A stretch of 52,599 bases of DNA from an uncultured Clostridia bacterium. GTDB lineage: Bacteria > Cyanobacteriota > Vampirovibrionia > Gastranaerophilales > Gastranaerophilaceae. Positions 1,678-7,018 of the stretch are shown piece by piece. Under the pieces are notes generated by a model, which saw nothing but the letters and a program-made list of their open reading frames with translations, made no database searches and was not told the DNA's origin. Position 1 is the first letter of the stretch. Each line of letters begins with the position of its first letter. The DNA is taken from the NCBI GenBank assembly GCA_945946765.1, contig CAMEWS010000007.1, positions 1-52,599 on the forward strand. Direction: 5' to 3'. The translations under genes and the position numbers were made by a program.

Positions 1678-3216
1678 CTAATTCCAATATCTCCAGCCTT
1701 GCAAGTAATAATCCAATATAGCAGGTTTGTCCATTGTGGAATATTTTATATCGTTGCGTTGTATATCTTTTTCTATTACAAAAGCTTTTTTAAATGTATT
1801 TGAGTCAAGATATTTTGTATGAACCATCAAATTGAATTTGTTCAAATCATAATTTATTTTGGTAGCAAGCATAAATCCCCAATCACCAAAGGACGGCACA
1901 TAAACATGATAGGGCGAAATATACTTATATCCTGCAGCCTTCAGGGTTTCTTTTACACACCAATATGCCTCCGAGGAAAAATAAGGGCTTGTTGCTTGAG
2001 TGACAAGTAAACCTTCTTTTGACAATTTTTTACTCGCAAGCTTGTAAAATTCACGACTGTATAATCTTGCAAGAGAAGAATTATTTGGGTCGGGCAAATC
2101 AATAATTATTACATCAAAATATTGGTTTGAGTTTTCTATATATTTAAAAGCATCTTCATTTATTATTTCAACTTTGGGGTCAAAAAAGCTTTTTTGGTTC
2201 AATTCTTTGACAATTCTGTTGTTCTTGGCAAGGTCTGTCATATCTTTGTCCAAATCAACAACAGTAATATTTTTTACATCTTTGTATTTTAAAATTTCTC
2301 TTGCTGCAAGTCCGTCACCGCCGCCCAGTACAAGAATATTTTCTCTGTGTTTTGCAAGCGATAAAGGTACATGCACCAATAGCTCGTGATACCTGTGTTC
2401 ATCAACTGAAGAAAATTGAACGTTTCCGTCTATAAATAAGCGGATATCTTCTTTATTCTTTGTCATGACAAGCTTTTGATACTTTGTTTGTTGAGAAAAA
2501 ATTACTCTGTCATCAAAAATATTGTTTTCCCAATATTTCATAAGACCTTTAGAGCATATAAAAGTACCTGTTAACAACAACAAAACAAGAATTGATGATA
2601 TTTTGAGTTTTGCTTTTCTTTTAAATGTGATTTTGTCTTTAAACCAATAAAAATTTATTATGCCGACAATCAGGTTTAAAAGTCCTGCAAAAACAGAACT
2701 TTCAAATATTCCCATTAGAGGCAGGAGTAAAAAAGGAAATGCAAGAGTTGCGATAAAAGCTCCTAAATAATCCAACGATAGTACATTTGAAATATTATTT
2801 CTTAAATCGTAATATTTTTCCATAATTCTTGTTAAAAGGGGAATTTCAAGTCCGATAAGCCCGCCTATCATCATTATTAAAACAAACATTACGGGATAAT
2901 ACACCGGCTCGCACATATAAGAAAAATATAAAATCGGCACACATAAACCGCCGACAACGGCAAGCACAATTTCGATAAAAATAAACGTGTATATCAGGTT
3001 TTCTTTTATCACTCTGGAAACTAATGTGCCTAACCCCATTGCTGTCATAGTAAGACCTATAACAAGAGAAAACTGTTTTATACTATCTCCGAGAAAATAA
3101 GAAGAAACGCTGCCGATTAATAATTCATAAATTATTGTGCAAAAACCGACAACAAAAACCGACAACAAAAGAATCACAGACTCTTTTGAAGATAGAATTT
3201 TTTTCTTATTTTCCAC
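1678..3216 (-). CDS. Membrane-anchored spermidine-synthase-like protein
   Basis: 512 residues in two parts. Residues about 1-220 are hydrophobic with roughly seven membrane spans. Residues about 225-490 form a polyamine aminopropyltransferase / class I methyltransferase fold. The catalytic part shows FIDGNVQFSSVDEHRYHE (the DGxxQ-to-HExxxH region), the nucleotide loop VLGGGDGLA, VVDLD, NEDAF and IIDLPDPNN, in the place of the catalytic aspartate loop of SpeE. Family knowledge suggests aminopropyl transfer from decarboxylated S-adenosylmethionine, but no speD is present here and the true substrate is unknown. Translation starts at GTG with AGAGGA upstream, overlapping the preceding gene by 11 bases. 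It is the last gene of the pspA-type operon. Confidence 0.88.
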   Translation of the reverse strand: MENKKKILSSKESVILLLSVFVVGFCTIIYELLIGSVSSYFLGDSIKQFSLVIGLTMTAMGLGTLVSRVIKENLIYTFIFIEIVLAVVGGLCVPILYFSYMCEPVYYPVMFVLIMMIGGLIGLEIPLLTRIMEKYYDLRNNISNVLSLDYLGAFIATLAFPFLLLPLMGIFESSVFAGLLNLIVGIINFYWFKDKITFKRKAKLKISSILVLLLLTGTFICSKGLMKYWENNIFDDRVIFSQQTKYQKLVMTKNKEDIRLFIDGNVQFSSVDEHRYHELLVHVPLSLAKHRENILVLGGGDGLAAREILKYKDVKNITVVDLDKDMTDLAKNNRIVKELNQKSFFDPKVEIINEDAFKYIENSNQYFDVIIIDLPDPNNSSLARLYSREFYKLASKKLSKEGLLVTQATSPYFSSEAYWCVKETLKAAGYKYISPYHVYVPSFGDWGFMLATKINYDLNKFNLMVHTKYLDSNTFKKAFVIEKDIQRNDIKYSTMDKPAILDYYLQGWRYWN

Positions 3217-3454
3217 CGCTCAATCCTCTTTGCGACATTCTGTTTCCGCCAACACTGTTTTCTCTTACGGAAGAAGAATAACTTTCATCATAGTTTCTTA
3301 CATACCAATGAGAATGATAATGTGTTCCGTGATAACCTTTGTATCCGGGGTAGCCGTAGCCTTTTTGTGCAAGAGTGTCGCAGTATTGAAAAAGAACAAA
3401 CAATACAAAAACAAGACAAGCATATATTAAAATTTCATAATTTCTGTTAGTCAT
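3206..3454 (-). CDS. Small Tyr/Gly/His-rich single-span membrane protein of the PspA operon
   Basis: 82 residues from the ATG at 3454, which overlaps the upstream stop codon in an ATGACTAA arrangement and has GGAAGAG upstream. A longer frame from 3478 is possible but lacks a ribosome site. One membrane helix (YACLVFVLFVLFQYC) is followed by a low-complexity tail, KGYGYPGYKGYHGTHYHSHW, ending in SVRENSVGGNRMSQRGLSGGK-type Ser/Arg/Gly sequence. Small proteins of this character occur beside membrane spermidine synthases, DUF350 and PspA genes in other bacteria, but I cannot name a family with certainty. It overlaps genes on both sides, so its translation is probably coupled. The role is unknown. 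Confidence 0.75.
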   Translation of the reverse strand: MTNRNYEILIYACLVFVLFVLFQYCDTLAQKGYGYPGYKGYHGTHYHSHWYVRNYDESYSSSVRENSVGGNRMSQRGLSGGK

Positions 3455-4052
3455 CAGACATCTCTTCCAATTTTTCATTAATTATTGCAGCTTTTTCGTT
3501 TACCCATTGAACGTTAAGCATATAAAATATAATCATTACAAGCAACAGTAACAACGAGCCAAACATATAAAAAGGGACGTAGCTTTTTTTTATTTCTTTA
3601 ATACTTATGGATATGTTGTTAATATTTCCCTCATCCGTACTGAATTGTAACTGATAAGTTCCCTTGTCTTTAAAGGTTAAATAAGCGGACAAATCTCTGT
3701 CGGATTCTGACCAATAACCTTCAGAGTCATAACCTTCTTCATGCCAAAAATCTTTACCGAGTTCATAAAGAGTTTCCCCGTCTTCATCCTGTACTTCGGT
3801 AGTGAGGTATGAACTTGACATATTCCCGTAAAAATGAGCCTTAATTTTAAATATTTTGTTTTTTTTATCTACAACAATCGGACCGAAGGTTGTATTCTCG
3901 TTTAAATAGTTTGGTTCGTACGTGTGTATTGCTTTATCACCGCACAAGCTCATTGCATTACCAAAAAAGATAATTGCAGCTATTGCACAAATCAAAAGAA
4001 GGTTGTTATAAAAAATTTTATCTTTATGTTTCTGTTTAGGTCTGATTAACAT
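3447..4052 (-). CDS. Two-helix membrane protein with extracytoplasmic beta-type domain
   Basis: 201 residues from the ATG at 4052. That ATG has AGGGG six bases upstream; a TTG at 4058 would leave no room for it. A short basic N-terminus leads into one membrane helix (LLLICAIAAIIFFGNAM). About 110 polar residues with alternating hydrophobic strands follow (KIFKIKAHFYGNMSSSYLTTE; LSAYLTFKDKGTYQLQFSTDEG), then a second helix (MFGSLLLLLVMIIFYML) and a short cytosolic tail. The topology suggests a beta-sandwich sensor held outside the membrane. I do not recognise the family. It lies between the DUF350 protein and the Tyr/Gly/His-rich protein in the operon. Confidence 0.8.
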   Translation of the reverse strand: MLIRPKQKHKDKIFYNNLLLICAIAAIIFFGNAMSLCGDKAIHTYEPNYLNENTTFGPIVVDKKNKIFKIKAHFYGNMSSSYLTTEVQDEDGETLYELGKDFWHEEGYDSEGYWSESDRDLSAYLTFKDKGTYQLQFSTDEGNINNISISIKEIKKSYVPFYMFGSLLLLLVMIIFYMLNVQWVNEKAAIINEKLEEMSDD

Positions 4053-4061
4053 ACACAACCC

Positions 4062-4934
4062 CTATATTGCTACCGTAAAATCAACCATGAAAAATACCAG
4101 TAAAGCAAAGCATATTATACAGGTAAATTCTATAAGCCCTGCCGCAACGTTGTTTTGTTGGATTTCTTTATTAATATTTATTGCTTTAACAATAAAGTTA
4201 CCCAAAATGTATCTTACAGTCGGCAACATTAAAATGATTGCTGATAAGTCAACAAAATATGTAATCAAACTGTTTTTCCAGCCTTCGACATCTCCCAGTG
4301 TCGCTTTCATAAGAATAATACCAATAGCAATTATGTTGCCCGCAAGTGCAATACCTGCAGCATAATTGTCTTCTTCCAATTCTTTATGTATGGAATAAGG
4401 CGTAATAAAGTCGTAAATTCTTAAAAAGATGAACATAAAACATACGCTTAAAAAATAATAAAATACGGAGGATAATATACCGCCAATTTCCCCGTTAACA
4501 CAAGCCGCTATAATTAAGCCGTGCGCAACATAAAAGCCGAAGTATACAGCCGCAGTTCCAATGTTTTTATCCTGTAAAAGTTCTTTGGAATTATCGAAAC
4601 GATTAAGCATTATTTTACGGGTAATAAATCCCGAAAGTGTCATAAGAACAATACCTGCTAACGCATAGGCAATGTACATAACCAAATCTGCTTTAAAAGA
4701 TTTTGCGGTTGGACCGACAAATGCACCAACCAAAATTGCAACAATCCCAAACATATAACCGCAAAAAGCAAGAGTTGCGGTATGGTTAGATGCTTTTACC
4801 TGTGCTTCGGGTTTAAAAATTGCAAATTTATCAAACATATATTTTGATAAATAAAGCATTATGCAAGATATCATCAGATAAATAATACTTGATACAACAG
4901 GATTATTAACTATGCTTGAAATATTAATATTCAT
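4062..4934 (-). CDS. Duplicated DUF350 integral membrane protein
   Basis: 290 residues, about eight membrane helices. The protein looks like two DUF350 units in tandem: loops such as FKPEAQVKASNHTATLAFCG and HKELEEDNYAAGIALAGN are related, as are KELLQDKNIGTAAVYFGFYV and NKEIQQNNVAAGLIEFTCII. The usual E. coli relative YjfL has one unit of about 130 residues. DUF350 proteins are found with PspA paralogs and with enzymes that make or ligate polyamines; their biochemical function is not established. AAAGG precedes the ATG by nine bases. It follows the DUF4178-like gene by five bases, so the two are surely co-transcribed. Confidence 0.87.
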   Translation of the reverse strand: MNINISSIVNNPVVSSIIYLMISCIMLYLSKYMFDKFAIFKPEAQVKASNHTATLAFCGYMFGIVAILVGAFVGPTAKSFKADLVMYIAYALAGIVLMTLSGFITRKIMLNRFDNSKELLQDKNIGTAAVYFGFYVAHGLIIAACVNGEIGGILSSVFYYFLSVCFMFIFLRIYDFITPYSIHKELEEDNYAAGIALAGNIIAIGIILMKATLGDVEGWKNSLITYFVDLSAIILMLPTVRYILGNFIVKAININKEIQQNNVAAGLIEFTCIICFALLVFFMVDFTVAI

Positions 4935-4939
4935 AAAAT

Positions 4940-5608
4940 TTAACCTTTGTTTCTTAATACTCTGATTTGTGACGGTCTCATTTTTTGAGAAATAAAGACT
5001 TGATAATCGTTATCTCCCCATTTCTCTACGCTTAAAATTTTATTCCCTTTAATAAAATCCCAATAATAAAGTTTTTCTGCTTTTGTGTCATCACAAAAAC
5101 GGTAATATGTCGCATTCCCTGAATCTGAATAAACGTAACCTTTGCCGGCTCTACCTGATTCGTCATAATCAATTTGTTTTAAAAGTTCGGGAGTGAGTCG
5201 TACTGCCTTAAGATTTGTTTTTTCCAAAACAACACTTACAACAGTTTCATCATCATCTTCCACTTCCACCCAAACTTTATTTTCTGTTCCGTCATCACAT
5301 TCCAGTTCAAACCAGGAAAAATCACCATCCATATAGAAATGTTTTGCCAAAACTTTTAAAGTATAATTTTTAAATTCTCTGCCAACACCACTAAGTTCAA
5401 AGACTCCGCCTTTTTCAAGATTTACAACGTGGAGTGTTTCTTCAGGTACGGAATTTATATTTTCCTTTATTGATTTATTTCTCATAATTATTGCCCAAAC
5501 TACCAGACCGCCGATTATAAGAAATAAAAAATTCATCATCATTGCAGAACCTCCAAACATCACTATTGATATTATTATTAAAAATATAATTGTTAAAGCT
5601 AAATACAT
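4940..5608 (-). CDS. DUF4178-type membrane protein
   Basis: 222 residues. Two adjacent N-terminal membrane helices (residues about 1-45) are followed by a cytosolic, strand-rich domain. That domain has the features of DUF4178: the repeated pattern GVGREFKNYTLKVLAKHFYM, then FSWFELECDDGTENKVWVEVE, and near the end KLYYWDFIKGNKILSVEKWG. Family knowledge links DUF4178 proteins to the same PspA, DUF350 and spermidine-synthase neighbourhoods seen here, without a known activity. An AAGGA site precedes the ATG. The gap to pspA is nine bases. Confidence 0.8.
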   Translation of the reverse strand: MYLALTIIFLIIISIVMFGGSAMMMNFLFLIIGGLVVWAIIMRNKSIKENINSVPEETLHVVNLEKGGVFELSGVGREFKNYTLKVLAKHFYMDGDFSWFELECDDGTENKVWVEVEDDDETVVSVVLEKTNLKAVRLTPELLKQIDYDESGRAGKGYVYSDSGNATYYRFCDDTKAEKLYYWDFIKGNKILSVEKWGDNDYQVFISQKMRPSQIRVLRNKG

Positions 5609-5617
5609 AATTTATCC

Positions 5618-6400
5618 TTAGTTGTCCAGTTCATTTTTTTTATCGGCAAGGTTGTCCTCTGTTGGTTCCGTTGATATGGATTCTTGGACAGAAGAATTGT
5701 CGGTAAGCATTTTTGCTTTCAATTCTGCAAGAGCCGCTTGAGTATCCGGTGATGATGTTTCAAGAGCCGCATTAATTTGCTTATCTATATCCGTTTCAAT
5801 AGATTCCATTGAACCGTATGCTTCGGCAAGTGTTTCTTCTTCATTGATTTTATTTTTCATTTCTTCAAGCAATCCTGCTGTGCTGTCAGAACTCATCGAA
5901 ACAAGTTGTTGATTGATTTTTTTAGAAGAAACGGCAACTGTATGACGGGCTTTTAAAGATTTTAATTCGCCTTCCCATTTTTTGATTTCGTTTTTAAGTT
6001 TGGCAATTTTGTTTTCAAATTGACCAATCATCATATTATATTTATCTAACGAGCCTTTTAATTGAGCGGCTGTTGTAAGAGCTTCCTGTTTTTTGTTCAA
6101 AGCTTCACCCGCTAATCTGTCGGCTTCGGCAGAATCCAATGTCCCTGATTGTGCAGCTTTTAAAAGTGCCATTGCTTTATTTTCATAGTCTTGCGCAATT
6201 TGTTTTTGTTCTTCAAGTTCACGTTTTGTAGAAATTGCAATAGCCTTTACTTCGGCAAGTCCTTTTAAGCTGTTATCAAAATCGGTTTTTAAATCTCTTA
6301 TGCCTTGCTCCGCCAATTTAATCGGGTCTTCAAATTTAGATACGATAAAATGCAAAGAAGACTGTATAACTTTAAATAATCTTTCTAACAAGCTTGCCAT
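5618..6400 (-). CDS. pspA: PspA/IM30 (Vipp1) family membrane-stress protein
   Basis: 260 residues, almost entirely coiled coil. The family hallmark is the N-terminal amphipathic helix plus following turn, here MASLLERLFKVIQSSLHF then the SKFEDP segment, which matches the AEDP-type turn of PspA/Vipp1. Long helices follow (KRELEEQKQIAQDYENKAMA; KIAKLKNEIKKWEGELKSLK), and then an acidic disordered tail after about residue 215. Family members are ESCRT-III-like and polymerise on stressed membranes to stop proton leakage. The operon partners (DUF4178, DUF350, spermidine-synthase-like) place it in the polyamine-linked PspA group rather than the classical pspF/BC system. A GGAG site precedes the ATG. 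The J-domain gene lies 17 bases upstream. Confidence 0.92.
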   Translation of the reverse strand: MASLLERLFKVIQSSLHFIVSKFEDPIKLAEQGIRDLKTDFDNSLKGLAEVKAIAISTKRELEEQKQIAQDYENKAMALLKAAQSGTLDSAEADRLAGEALNKKQEALTTAAQLKGSLDKYNMMIGQFENKIAKLKNEIKKWEGELKSLKARHTVAVSSKKINQQLVSMSSDSTAGLLEEMKNKINEEETLAEAYGSMESIETDIDKQINAALETSSPDTQAALAELKAKMLTDNSSVQESISTEPTEDNLADKKNELDN

Positions 6401-6417
6401 AACTTAACTCCATTCTG

Positions 6418-6780
6418 TTATTTATTATATTTTTCTTCAAAATAATTATATGCTATATTTAGCTTTTTAACCACTTCTTGAGCGGTTTGCAACTTTTTTT
6501 CATCACCGTAAAATTTATCAGGGTGATATTTTTTTAAAAGCCTTTTATAAGAAGCCTTTATTTCTTCAAAATCGGCACCGTAAGAAACTTCTAAATTTGC
6601 AAAATATTCTTTTTCTTTTTGCGTAACAGGGTCTTCATTTTGAGATGTGATTTCATCCGGCTCCGAGTATGTATTTTCAAAAGAACAACCATTTTCATAA
6701 ATAAAATCGCTTGAACAATTTTGATTTTTACAATTCAAATTGCTTCTGACAATATTTTTAATTCTTTTAAATAAGCTCAA
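6418..6780 (-). CDS. J-domain co-chaperone with PspA-like N-terminal helix
   Basis: 120 residues. The C-terminal half is a J domain with the diagnostic HPD in LLKKYHPDKFYG, preceded by EEIKASYKRL and followed by a helix ending in LNIAYNYFEEKYNK. J domains stimulate the ATPase of DnaK. The N-terminus MSLFKRIKNIVRSNLN resembles the membrane-binding first helix of PspA/Vipp1 proteins (typically MGLF-R---VVRANLN). That would place the co-chaperone on the same membranes as the PspA encoded next. A short linker with four cysteines (NCKNQNC, NGC) separates the two parts. The start is TTG at 6780 with GGA eight bases upstream; no in-frame ATG fits. It is the first gene of the operon. Confidence 0.85.
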   Translation of the reverse strand: MSLFKRIKNIVRSNLNCKNQNCSSDFIYENGCSFENTYSEPDEITSQNEDPVTQKEKEYFANLEVSYGADFEEIKASYKRLLKKYHPDKFYGDEKKLQTAQEVVKKLNIAYNYFEEKYNK

Positions 6781-7018
6781 AATACAATTCCATCTACAAT
6801 AAATCTGTTTTTAATAATATTAAATATTAAGTATATTTTCAAGTTTTTCTTTTAAAAAAGACCGATATATGATAGTATAATTTTAGATTAGTATAAAGAA
6901 TTAATTATTTTTTAATATGAATTAAAAATTCAATAGCACTAATGAAATTCAACCGAATACGCCAAAAGCATATTTGGTTATATGTATATAGTATAAGAGG
7001 TATAGGACAATCGACACA
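6781..7018. promoter_or_regulatory. Divergent promoter region between the PspA operon and rny
   Basis: 238 non-coding bases, very AT-rich, separating the minus-strand seven-gene operon from rny. A perfect TATAAT occurs at 6876-6881 on the plus strand, with no good -35 box at the right distance. Further TATAAG/TATAGT-like strings lie at about 6985-7005, nearer the rny start. Nothing here looks like an open reading frame or a stable RNA. Assigning a specific promoter would be a guess. Confidence 0.4.

What the first reader, a model, noticed from the sequence alone, without database searches (positions are those of the whole stretch)
1678..6780. Seven-gene J-domain / PspA / DUF350 / spermidine-synthase operon
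Seen: seven minus-strand genes with gaps or overlaps of at most 17 bases encode a J-domain protein, PspA/Vipp1 homolog, DUF4178-like protein, doubled DUF350 protein, a two-helix membrane protein, a Tyr/Gly/His-rich single-span protein and a membrane spermidine-synthase-like enzyme. Known: PspA paralogs recur with DUF350, DUF4178 and polyamine enzymes in several phyla. Inference: this is a self-contained membrane-repair module in which a polyamine or polyamine-like product made at the membrane works with a PspA polymer and Hsp70. The J-domain gene and the two unrecognised membrane proteins are parts I have not seen described in the set.
Basis: partly seen in the sequence, partly recalled or inferred. 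Interest (0 to 1): 0.78.

Follow-up and report, generated by a model that had tools for sequence, protein, structure and literature searches.

The report
Membrane-repair operon with lysine-tailed protein
A gut bacterium carries a seven-gene membrane-stress kit in which a membrane-coating protein travels with its own chaperone helper, and a membrane enzyme that should transfer aminopropyl groups travels with a small protein that ended in lysine in every copy examined, hinting that the enzyme may modify that protein rather than make ordinary polyamines.

Summary
The seven genes are real and occur as a block beside rny in 7 of 23 genomes examined of the genus. Ravi et al. 2024 already describe the core: CesT/Tir, PspA, DUF350, DUF4178, fused 7TM-spermidine synthase, lipoprotein.

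New here:
1. The J protein is a recurrent PspA partner with an N-terminal helix like Vipp1/PspA helix 0, above all 891 control N-termini. An HPD-bearing J precedes pspA in 21 of 37 PspA loci of the order. In 395 Bacteroidota genomes the ten best matches are all J-CesT-PspA.
2. The "two-helix" protein is a stand-alone form of the C-terminal domain of other DUF4178 proteins.
3. The small protein is one of a class of tail proteins ending exactly in lysine: 43 of 43, one more found later. Beside the alternative peptide-spermidine ligase 0 of 12 chosen partners do; 8 end in Gly-Gly.

The enzyme keeps dcAdoMet-site residues but lacks SpeE's QSE-motif acid in 44 of 44. I read it as an aminopropyltransferase whose acceptor may be the tail's C-terminal lysine. 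Untested.

The parts
6418..6780 (-). J-domain protein (120 aa, TTG start): PspA/Vipp1-like N-terminal amphipathic helix, linker, C-terminal J domain
   Evidence: Pfam DnaJ 9.3e-10; alignment with conserved start; helix test
6733..6777 (-). helix-0-like segment of the J protein (SLFKRIKNIVRSNLN)
   Evidence: score 23.7 with a matrix built only from Vipp1/PspA helices of other families of the phylum; best of 891 controls 7.7
6517..6525 (-). HPD motif of the J domain
   Evidence: sequence; invariant in alignments A1 and A7
5618..6400 (-). PspA/IM30 family protein (260 aa), the only PspA found in this MAG
4940..5608 (-). DUF4178 protein with an N-terminal hydrophobic stretch
   Evidence: Pfam 8.8e-13; hydrophobic stretch read from the sequence
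4062..4934 (-). doubled DUF350 membrane protein
   Evidence: Pfam 1.2e-48, two stretches
3447..4058 (-). TM2: domain between two hydrophobic helices; stand-alone form of the C-terminal domain of other DUF4178 proteins
   Evidence: hhalign probability 99%, E 6e-17; four control alignments at most 4.4%
3206..3478 (-). tail protein (YGH): one hydrophobic helix and a Tyr/Gly/His-rich tail; likely start at base 3454
   Evidence: alignment with relatives
3209..3211 (-). codon of the C-terminal lysine of the tail protein (...RGLSGGK-stop)
   Evidence: 43 of 43 tails end in K, 20 of 20 divergent representatives
1678..3216 (-). membrane aminopropyltransferase (7TM + spermidine-synthase domain)
   Evidence: NF002956 624.9 bits, cut-off 472; residues; topology
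2521..3189 (-). seven-helix membrane part of the aminopropyltransferase (residues 10-232)
   Evidence: K/R-rich loops alternate in 44 homologues; seven long helices in a low-confidence AlphaFold model
6781..7018 (.). divergent intergenic region to rny, where the operon promoter is expected (one of the best consensus matches, 10 of 12, at 6842-6814; not singled out by the scan)

Best explanation
This is a PspA-type envelope-stress operon working on both faces of the inner membrane. On the cytoplasmic side PspA forms an ESCRT-III-like coat. The J protein docks beside it on the membrane through its PspA-like helix and recruits DnaK, the ATPase that takes the coat apart or remodels it. This is the job that HSP70B-CDJ2 does for VIPP1 in chloroplasts. 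In and across the membrane, DUF4178, TM2 and DUF350 form the sensor or channel part. The membrane aminopropyltransferase acts on a dedicated acceptor, most likely the C-terminal lysine of the small tail protein, instead of making bulk spermidine. Shown here: the parts, their co-conservation, the helix, the HPD, the lysine rule and the change in the QSE motif. Inferred: Hsp70-driven PspA disassembly (about 0.55), an acceptor other than putrescine (about 0.55), the tail lysine being that acceptor (about 0.3), and catalysis on the outer face (about 0.35).
For: J-PspA: an HPD-bearing J gene lies directly 5' of pspA, or of CesT-pspA, on the same strand in 21 of 37 PspA loci of the order; gaps run from -83 (ORF ends as called) to 67 bases. 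The ten best J-profile matches from 395 Bacteroidota genomes are all J-CesT-PspA. The 21 HPD J proteins of the order, plus 4 others, beat all 891 control N-termini with a Vipp1/PspA helix matrix. [quoted passage not shown] Ravi et al. [quoted passage not shown] Tail: 43 of 43 end in Lys; 20 of 20 representatives under 60% alike over the last 25 residues, the next-best column reaching 10 of 20; background 35/374, 24/163 and 4/53. Beside the ATP-grasp peptide-spermidine ligase none of 12 chosen partners ends in Lys (8 Gly-Gly, 3 Gly-Ser, 1 His-Ala). Enzyme: D301, D373, D376, Y246 and Q247 kept in 42 to 44 of 44; the SpeE Glu of QSESP is T/G/S/C in 44 of 44. SpeE in 21 of 23 genomes of the genus. 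AdoMetDC and an amine-oxidase-family or FAD-dependent oxidoreductase beside the enzyme in two operons checked (L092, L074).
Against: No experiment. J is not obligatory: of 37 PspA loci 4 have a J-like gene with NPD/NPE and no such helix, 3 have only CesT, 9 have neither. Two of ten Bacteroidota triad J helices do not beat the best control (7.7 and 5.9 against 7.7). The tail proteins may be distantly homologous, so 43 is not 43 independent cases. One tail (L081) was found by looking for K-ending ORFs; without it 42 of 42 and 19 of 19. In three synthase loci (L083, L084, L093) no tail was found, on either strand, by a search that could only see K-ending ORFs. Lysine ends are common in some other operon proteins too: CesT 6 of 10, J 7 of 25, DUF4178 5 of 30. 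In the Vibrio campbellii ligase operon a further small gene next to the ligase, not counted among the 12, ends in Lys. Four of the 12 do not end in Gly-Gly, and that ligase is presumably cytoplasmic while its partners look like lipoproteins. An outward catalytic domain would need exported dcAdoMet, which I do not know to exist. DnaK and AdoMetDC were not found in this 80%-complete MAG, though most congeners searched have them. The AlphaFold model is weak (pLDDT 64, pTM 0.50).
Confidence: 0.45

Rival explanations
1. Local polyamine factory (first reader, and close to Ravi et al.): the membrane enzyme makes free spermidine or a related polyamine that binds lipids next to the PspA coat; the tail lysine has another role.
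For: The enzyme passes NF002956 'polyamine aminopropyltransferase' and keeps dcAdoMet-site residues. Ravi et al. [quoted passage not shown] AdoMetDC is found in 20 of 22 congeners.
Against: SpeE already found in 21 of 23 genomes of the genus; the QSE-motif acid is absent in 44 of 44; predicted outward catalytic domain; does not explain an invariant last residue in the adjacent protein.
Confidence: 0.3
2. Sensor reading: the tail's C-terminal lysine sits in the acceptor pocket as a pseudo-substrate, so the enzyme domain is a receptor (for dcAdoMet or extracytoplasmic polyamine) that signals through the 7TM part to PspA; little or no catalysis.
For: Same lysine rule and motif change; PspA systems respond to envelope stress and the 7TM part is called transporter-like by Ravi et al..
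Against: Catalytic aspartates kept in 44 of 44 at D373 and D376. Two related operons checked add AdoMetDC and an oxidoreductase, which fits turnover.
Confidence: 0.15
3. The J gene is a general chaperone helper that happens to sit in the operon, with no PspA-specific role.
For: J domains are common; 9 of 37 PspA loci have neither J nor CesT; 14 of 25 Bacteroidota J loci fetched show no PspA or CesT within 1.5 kb.
Against: Ten of ten best Bacteroidota matches lie at CesT-PspA; J-PspA pairs recur in three genomic contexts; PspA-like helix.
Confidence: 0.1
4. Anti-phage or other defence system.
For: Partial PADLOC hit of the synthase domain to mad2 (4.6e-20, residues 289-487; probably the shared methyltransferase-like fold, inference) and of PspA to LmuB (0.0012).
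Against: No other hit at E 0.01 for the seven proteins in that library. The further neighbourhood was not scanned for defence genes.
Confidence: 0.03

Closest known systems
CesT/Tir-PspA operon with 7TM-spermidine synthase, DUF350 (8TM), DUF4178 and Ctha_1186 lipoprotein (Ravi et al. 2024, PMC11237479; passages read)
   Same: PspA, doubled DUF350, DUF4178, fused 7TM-synthase, a small membrane or lipoprotein gene, compact operon
   Different: CesT/Tir absent in this genus's operon and a J-domain protein next to pspA; J-domain and DnaJ do not occur in that main text; TM2 a separate gene; lysine end not mentioned in the passages seen
VIPP1-CDJ2-HSP70B chaperone cycle of Chlamydomonas chloroplasts (review PMC13051332, passages read)
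   Same: an ESCRT-III-like coat served by a J protein and Hsp70
   Different: here the J gene sits in the pspA operon and its product carries a PspA-like helix; a bacterium
E. coli yjfIJKLMC and ygiBC (annotation of NC_000913.3)
   Same: PspA (YjfJ), DUF350 (YjfL), a polyamine enzyme and an adjacent protein with a Gly-rich C-terminus
   Different: enzyme annotated as peptide--spermidine ligase; YjfM and YgiB end in Gly-Gly, not Lys
SPFH/DUF4178/DUF350/aminopropyltransferase/oxidoreductase/speD operon of a Novosphingobium plasmid
   Same: DUF4178 proteins, tail ending in Lys, DUF350, membrane aminopropyltransferase
   Different: no PspA annotated; SPFH (band 7) protein, speD and an FAD-dependent oxidoreductase instead
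Deoxyhypusine/hypusine modification of eIF5A (recalled)
   Same: polyamine-derived group put on a lysine side chain, if the novel reading is right
   Different: different enzyme family, aminobutyl not aminopropyl, internal not C-terminal lysine

Membership tests
PspA-CesT/Tir-spermidine synthase operon (Ravi group 2) | PspA homologue | tested here: met
   Pfam PF04012 6.6e-39
PspA-CesT/Tir-spermidine synthase operon (Ravi group 2) | spermidine-synthase domain fused to 7TM region | tested here: met
   NF002956 624.9 bits; seven hydrophobic or helical segments
PspA-CesT/Tir-spermidine synthase operon (Ravi group 2) | DUF350 8TM protein and DUF4178 protein | tested here: met
   (two DUF350 stretches; the number of helices was not tested)
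PspA-CesT/Tir-spermidine synthase operon (Ravi group 2) | CesT/Tir chaperone gene next to pspA | tested here: not met
   no CesT hit in the window or the six congeners' operons; J protein there instead. Present in 6 other loci of the order, 3 of them with J
PspA-CesT/Tir-spermidine synthase operon (Ravi group 2) | Ctha_1186 lipoprotein | tested here: inconclusive
   YGH occupies a like position and shares the -GK end with Bacteroidota lipoproteins, but has no Pfam hit and, by eye, no good lipobox in the window copy; no Ctha_1186 model was at hand
J-domain protein (DnaJ family) | J domain with HPD | tested here: met
   PF00226 38.9 bits, cut-off 27.8; HPD
Spermidine synthase proper (putrescine aminopropyltransferase) | dcAdoMet-site and catalytic aspartates | tested here: met
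   D301, D373, D376
Spermidine synthase proper (putrescine aminopropyltransferase) | acidic residue of the QSE motif (role in binding putrescine recalled) | tested here: not met
   T in the window, T/G/S/C in 44 of 44 membrane enzymes; E in 2 of 2 SpeE of the genus. The solved synthase 1iy9 has D there, while 6bq2 and 7xif have G (alignments)
Spermidine synthase proper (putrescine aminopropyltransferase) | makes spermidine | not testable with these tools
   needs an enzyme assay
Anti-phage defence system | match to a PADLOC system | tested here: not met
   two partial hits among seven proteins

The most novel reading that the evidence does not exclude
The membrane enzyme is a protein aminopropyltransferase. 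It adds an aminopropyl group from decarboxylated AdoMet to the C-terminal lysine of the tail protein, a bacterial, C-terminal counterpart of hypusine. The E. coli-type operons reach the same end by ligating spermidine to a C-terminal Gly-Gly. Both give a membrane-anchored, polyamine-tipped tail tied to a PspA coat, here run by a J protein and Hsp70.
Probability: 0.28. Interest if true: 0.92.

Novelty: new variant of a known kind. Interest (0 to 1): 0.72.

Why it matters
Two open questions become testable. First, how PspA coats without an AAA ATPase are taken apart: a partner J protein with a PspA-like helix points to DnaK, as in chloroplasts. Second, what the polyamine enzymes repeatedly found with PspA, DUF350 and DUF4178 act on: in the loci examined, the last residue of the adjacent small protein tracks the enzyme type (Lys with the aminopropyltransferase, mostly Gly-Gly with the peptide-spermidine ligase), which suggests that the protein itself is the substrate.

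Tried and rejected
Defence-system reading: only partial PADLOC hits. TM2 against solved structures: best E 0.77. Promoter and terminator scan not usable. Idea that J simply replaces CesT: rejected as too simple, since both occur together in 3 loci of the order and in ten Bacteroidota loci. Idea that the window's synthase is the MAG's only spermidine-synthase-family protein: rejected. Loci first noted as lacking a tail: L081, L083, L084, L093, L094. A search for K-ending ORFs with a hydrophobic start found one in L081 and none in the other four on the synthase strand; the same filter on the other strand of L083, L084, L093 and L094 found none. L083 and L084 have no DUF350 hit. The second AlphaFold job (TM2) and a fold search were never accepted because the queue was full, so TM2's fold is untested. 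The direction of gain or loss of the operon was not resolved by a tree. Six of 13 plasmid records with a synthase match were not fetched. Li et al. 2019 (AdoMet decarboxylase linkages) is not in the library; Pederick et al. 2023 was seen only in citations.
Full report
What is there. The window is contig 7 of an 80%-complete, 1.65-Mb MAG; its closest named PspA relatives are Candidatus Gastranaerophilales MAGs, 78 to 84% identical. The one inexact detail is the TM2/YGH overlap, 32 bases as listed, 8 with the start used by relatives. The operon lies on the minus strand between tgt and rny.

Conservation. PspA passes its cut-off in 12 of 59 relatives searched and is found in 34 of 383 genomes of the order, 36 copies. 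I read the neighbourhood of all 36 plus one more genus member (G004): 37 loci. The seven-gene order is present in 7 of 23 genomes of the genus, always next to rny. tgt follows on the other side in 3 of the 7 (window, L023, L024); in L002, L003 and L004 it is not within 4 kb, and L005 ends too soon. DUF4178 follows pspA in 23 of the 37, two of these cut further on by a contig end. In 5 of the other 14 the contig ends within 250 bases of pspA, so the set cannot be judged there. Of 37, 21 have an HPD-bearing J gene directly 5' of pspA or of CesT-pspA (3 of them with CesT), 4 have a J-like gene with NPD or NPE, 3 have CesT alone and 9 have neither. Of the 16 genus members without PspA, tgt was found in 15. 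In 3 of these tgt and rny are adjacent, about 225 to 230 bases apart; in 12 rny is not in the fetched stretch of at most 1.5 kb. None of the 15 shows a remnant of the operon in that stretch. So the genes are present or absent as a block.

What is already known. Ravi et al. 2024 (PMC11237479, passages read) describe CesT/Tir-PspA with a 7TM-spermidine synthase, a DUF350 8TM protein, a DUF4178 protein and a lipoprotein. [quoted passage not shown] J-domain and DnaJ do not occur in that main text. [quoted passage not shown]

The J protein. Its first 16 residues look like helix 0 of Vipp1/PspA. I built a scoring matrix from 25 distinct 15-mers of Vipp1/PspA from other families of the phylum, and scored 891 other N-termini as control. 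Control mean was -1.4, SD 2.8, best 7.7. The window J scored 23.7, more than its own PspA (12.6). The 21 HPD J proteins of the order, three J proteins of family f14 (L062 to L064, no PspA in the fetched stretch; their genomes have one elsewhere) and one of Bacteroidota (L085) exceeded every control. The four NPD/NPE proteins did not (3.4 to 4.4). In 395 genomes of the Bacteroidota phylum the J profile matched 48 at E 1e-12. The ten best matches, 81 to 132 bits, were all J-CesT-PspA. Of the 25 loci fetched, 10 have this triad, one has PspA nearby, and 14 show neither within 1.5 kb. Eight of the ten triad J helices beat the best control, one equals it and one scores 5.9; their start codons I chose by eye. 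DnaK is found in 5 of 6 operon-bearing genomes searched, not in the incomplete MAG itself. [quoted passage not shown] The inference is that the operon carries its own adaptor to DnaK.

TM2. An alignment of 21 TM2 proteins matches the C-terminal part of 11 DUF4178-type proteins from other operons with 99% probability and E 6e-17. Four control alignments gave at most 4.4%. It is therefore a domain that is fused to DUF4178 elsewhere, which supports joint action.

The tail protein. Beside the membrane synthase there is a small membrane protein or lipoprotein. All 18 Bacteroidota-phylum genomes with the synthase (of 247), 7 of 13 plasmid records and the order's loci were examined. Three kinds were compared: YGH type (23; the order and an Ensifer plasmid), Bacteroidota lipoproteins (6), and short proteins of operons of the DUF4178-TM2 fusion type (14; ten Bacteroidota-phylum genomes and plasmids of Tritonibacter, two Novosphingobium and Gemmatirosa). 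DUF350 is recognised in all these loci but L088. All 43 end in lysine. Twenty representatives less than 60% alike over the last 25 positions all end in lysine; the next-best column (-2) is shared by 10. Background for ORFs of at least 150 residues in the same loci is 35/374, 24/163 and 4/53; other operon proteins end in lysine in 6 of 10 (CesT), 7 of 25 (J), 5 of 30 (DUF4178), 2 of 38 (PspA), 1 of 44 (SpdSyn), 0 of 41 (DUF350) and 0 of 21 (TM2). One tail (L081) was found by searching for K-ending ORFs and should be discounted: 42 of 42 and 19 of 19. In L083, L084 and L093 I found no tail, by a search that sees only K-ending ORFs.

The other enzyme. Next to the ATP-grasp peptide-spermidine ligase I took as partner the DUF1190-annotated neighbour or, failing that, the neighbour with an RGGFG-like tail (one of these is annotated as a tRNA-dihydrouridine synthase in its record). 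The 12 proteins come from E. coli (YjfM, YgiB) and ten plasmid loci chosen from a spread list of 40 of 139 records. They end in Gly-Gly (8), Gly-Ser (3) or His-Ala (1), never Lys. Four other neighbours were printed and not counted; one of them, a 119-residue gene between the DUF1190 gene and the ligase in Vibrio campbellii, ends in Lys. The activity of YjfC/YgiC is known to me from RefSeq names and citations only.

The enzyme. Across 44 membrane enzymes the residues of the dcAdoMet site and the two aspartates of D-L/F-P-D-P are kept, while the acid in the SpeE motif QSESP is T, G, S or C in all 44; two SpeE of the genus have E. That this acid binds the far amine of putrescine is recalled, not tested; two solved aminopropyltransferases, one a thermospermine synthase, have Gly there. 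SpeE is found in 21 of 23 genomes of the genus and AdoMetDC in 20 of 22 congeners. Loop charges (mean K+R per homologue, summed over 10-residue bins: N-terminus 2.7, then 0.7, 2.4, 0.2, 2.5, 0.4, 5.0) alternate as expected for N-in and seven helices, which puts the catalytic domain outside. The AlphaFold model shows seven long helices before the enzyme domain, but its confidence is low (pLDDT 64, pTM 0.50, parts of the helices under 50). The Novosphingobium operon with an SPFH gene carries speD and an FAD-dependent oxidoreductase. In a Bacteroidota-phylum operon (L074) Pfam finds AdoMet_dc and an Amino_oxidase-family protein whose N-terminus looks like a Tat/lipoprotein signal by eye.

Reading. 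The most economical account is a PspA coat with a J/Hsp70 adaptor on one face and, on the other, a membrane aminopropyltransferase whose acceptor is the lysine end of its neighbour. The J part rests on comparative evidence from two phyla; the acceptor part is a hypothesis that explains the lysine rule, the altered motif and the extra SpeE together. No paper describing either was found in searches of the open-access library, which lacks most subscription journals.

Noticed in passing
L036, L042, L043, L045, L050 (same order): A J-PspA pair without the spermidine set (L050 is cut by the contig end) lies directly 3' of a gene for a roughly 820-850 aa helicase (Pfam ResIII/DEAD in the one scanned, L036); genomes G100 and G204 have this pair as well as a second pspA with the set.
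   Followed up: partly
L038, L049, L051, L057: J-like proteins with HPD changed to NPD or NPE and no PspA-like helix are still kept 5' of pspA.
   Followed up: partly
L076 (5195-6589): The tail appears fused to the C-terminus of the DUF4178-type protein (464 aa) and still ends in lysine (SGSHK).
   Followed up: no
L026 (10631-10927 and 11525-11743): Two tail genes flank TM2 in one operon; the first could be a lipoprotein. Both end in GK.
   Followed up: no
L028, L029: J-PspA (L028) or PspA alone (L029) stands back to back with genes for a flotillin-like protein and a membrane protein with a weak NfeD match; TonB-C-like proteins are near.
   Followed up: no
L062, L063, L064: Members of another family of the phylum (f14) have J proteins with the same kind of N-terminal helix, not next to pspA in the stretch fetched.
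   Followed up: partly
L093 (Alteromonas plasmid): Membrane aminopropyltransferase, speD, toxic anion resistance protein, DUF4178 and DUF350 in one row; no lysine-ended tail found.
   Followed up: partly
L097 (3141-3500): Vibrio campbellii: a 119-residue protein with a signal-like start, between the DUF1190 gene and the ligase gene, ends in AGK.
   Followed up: no
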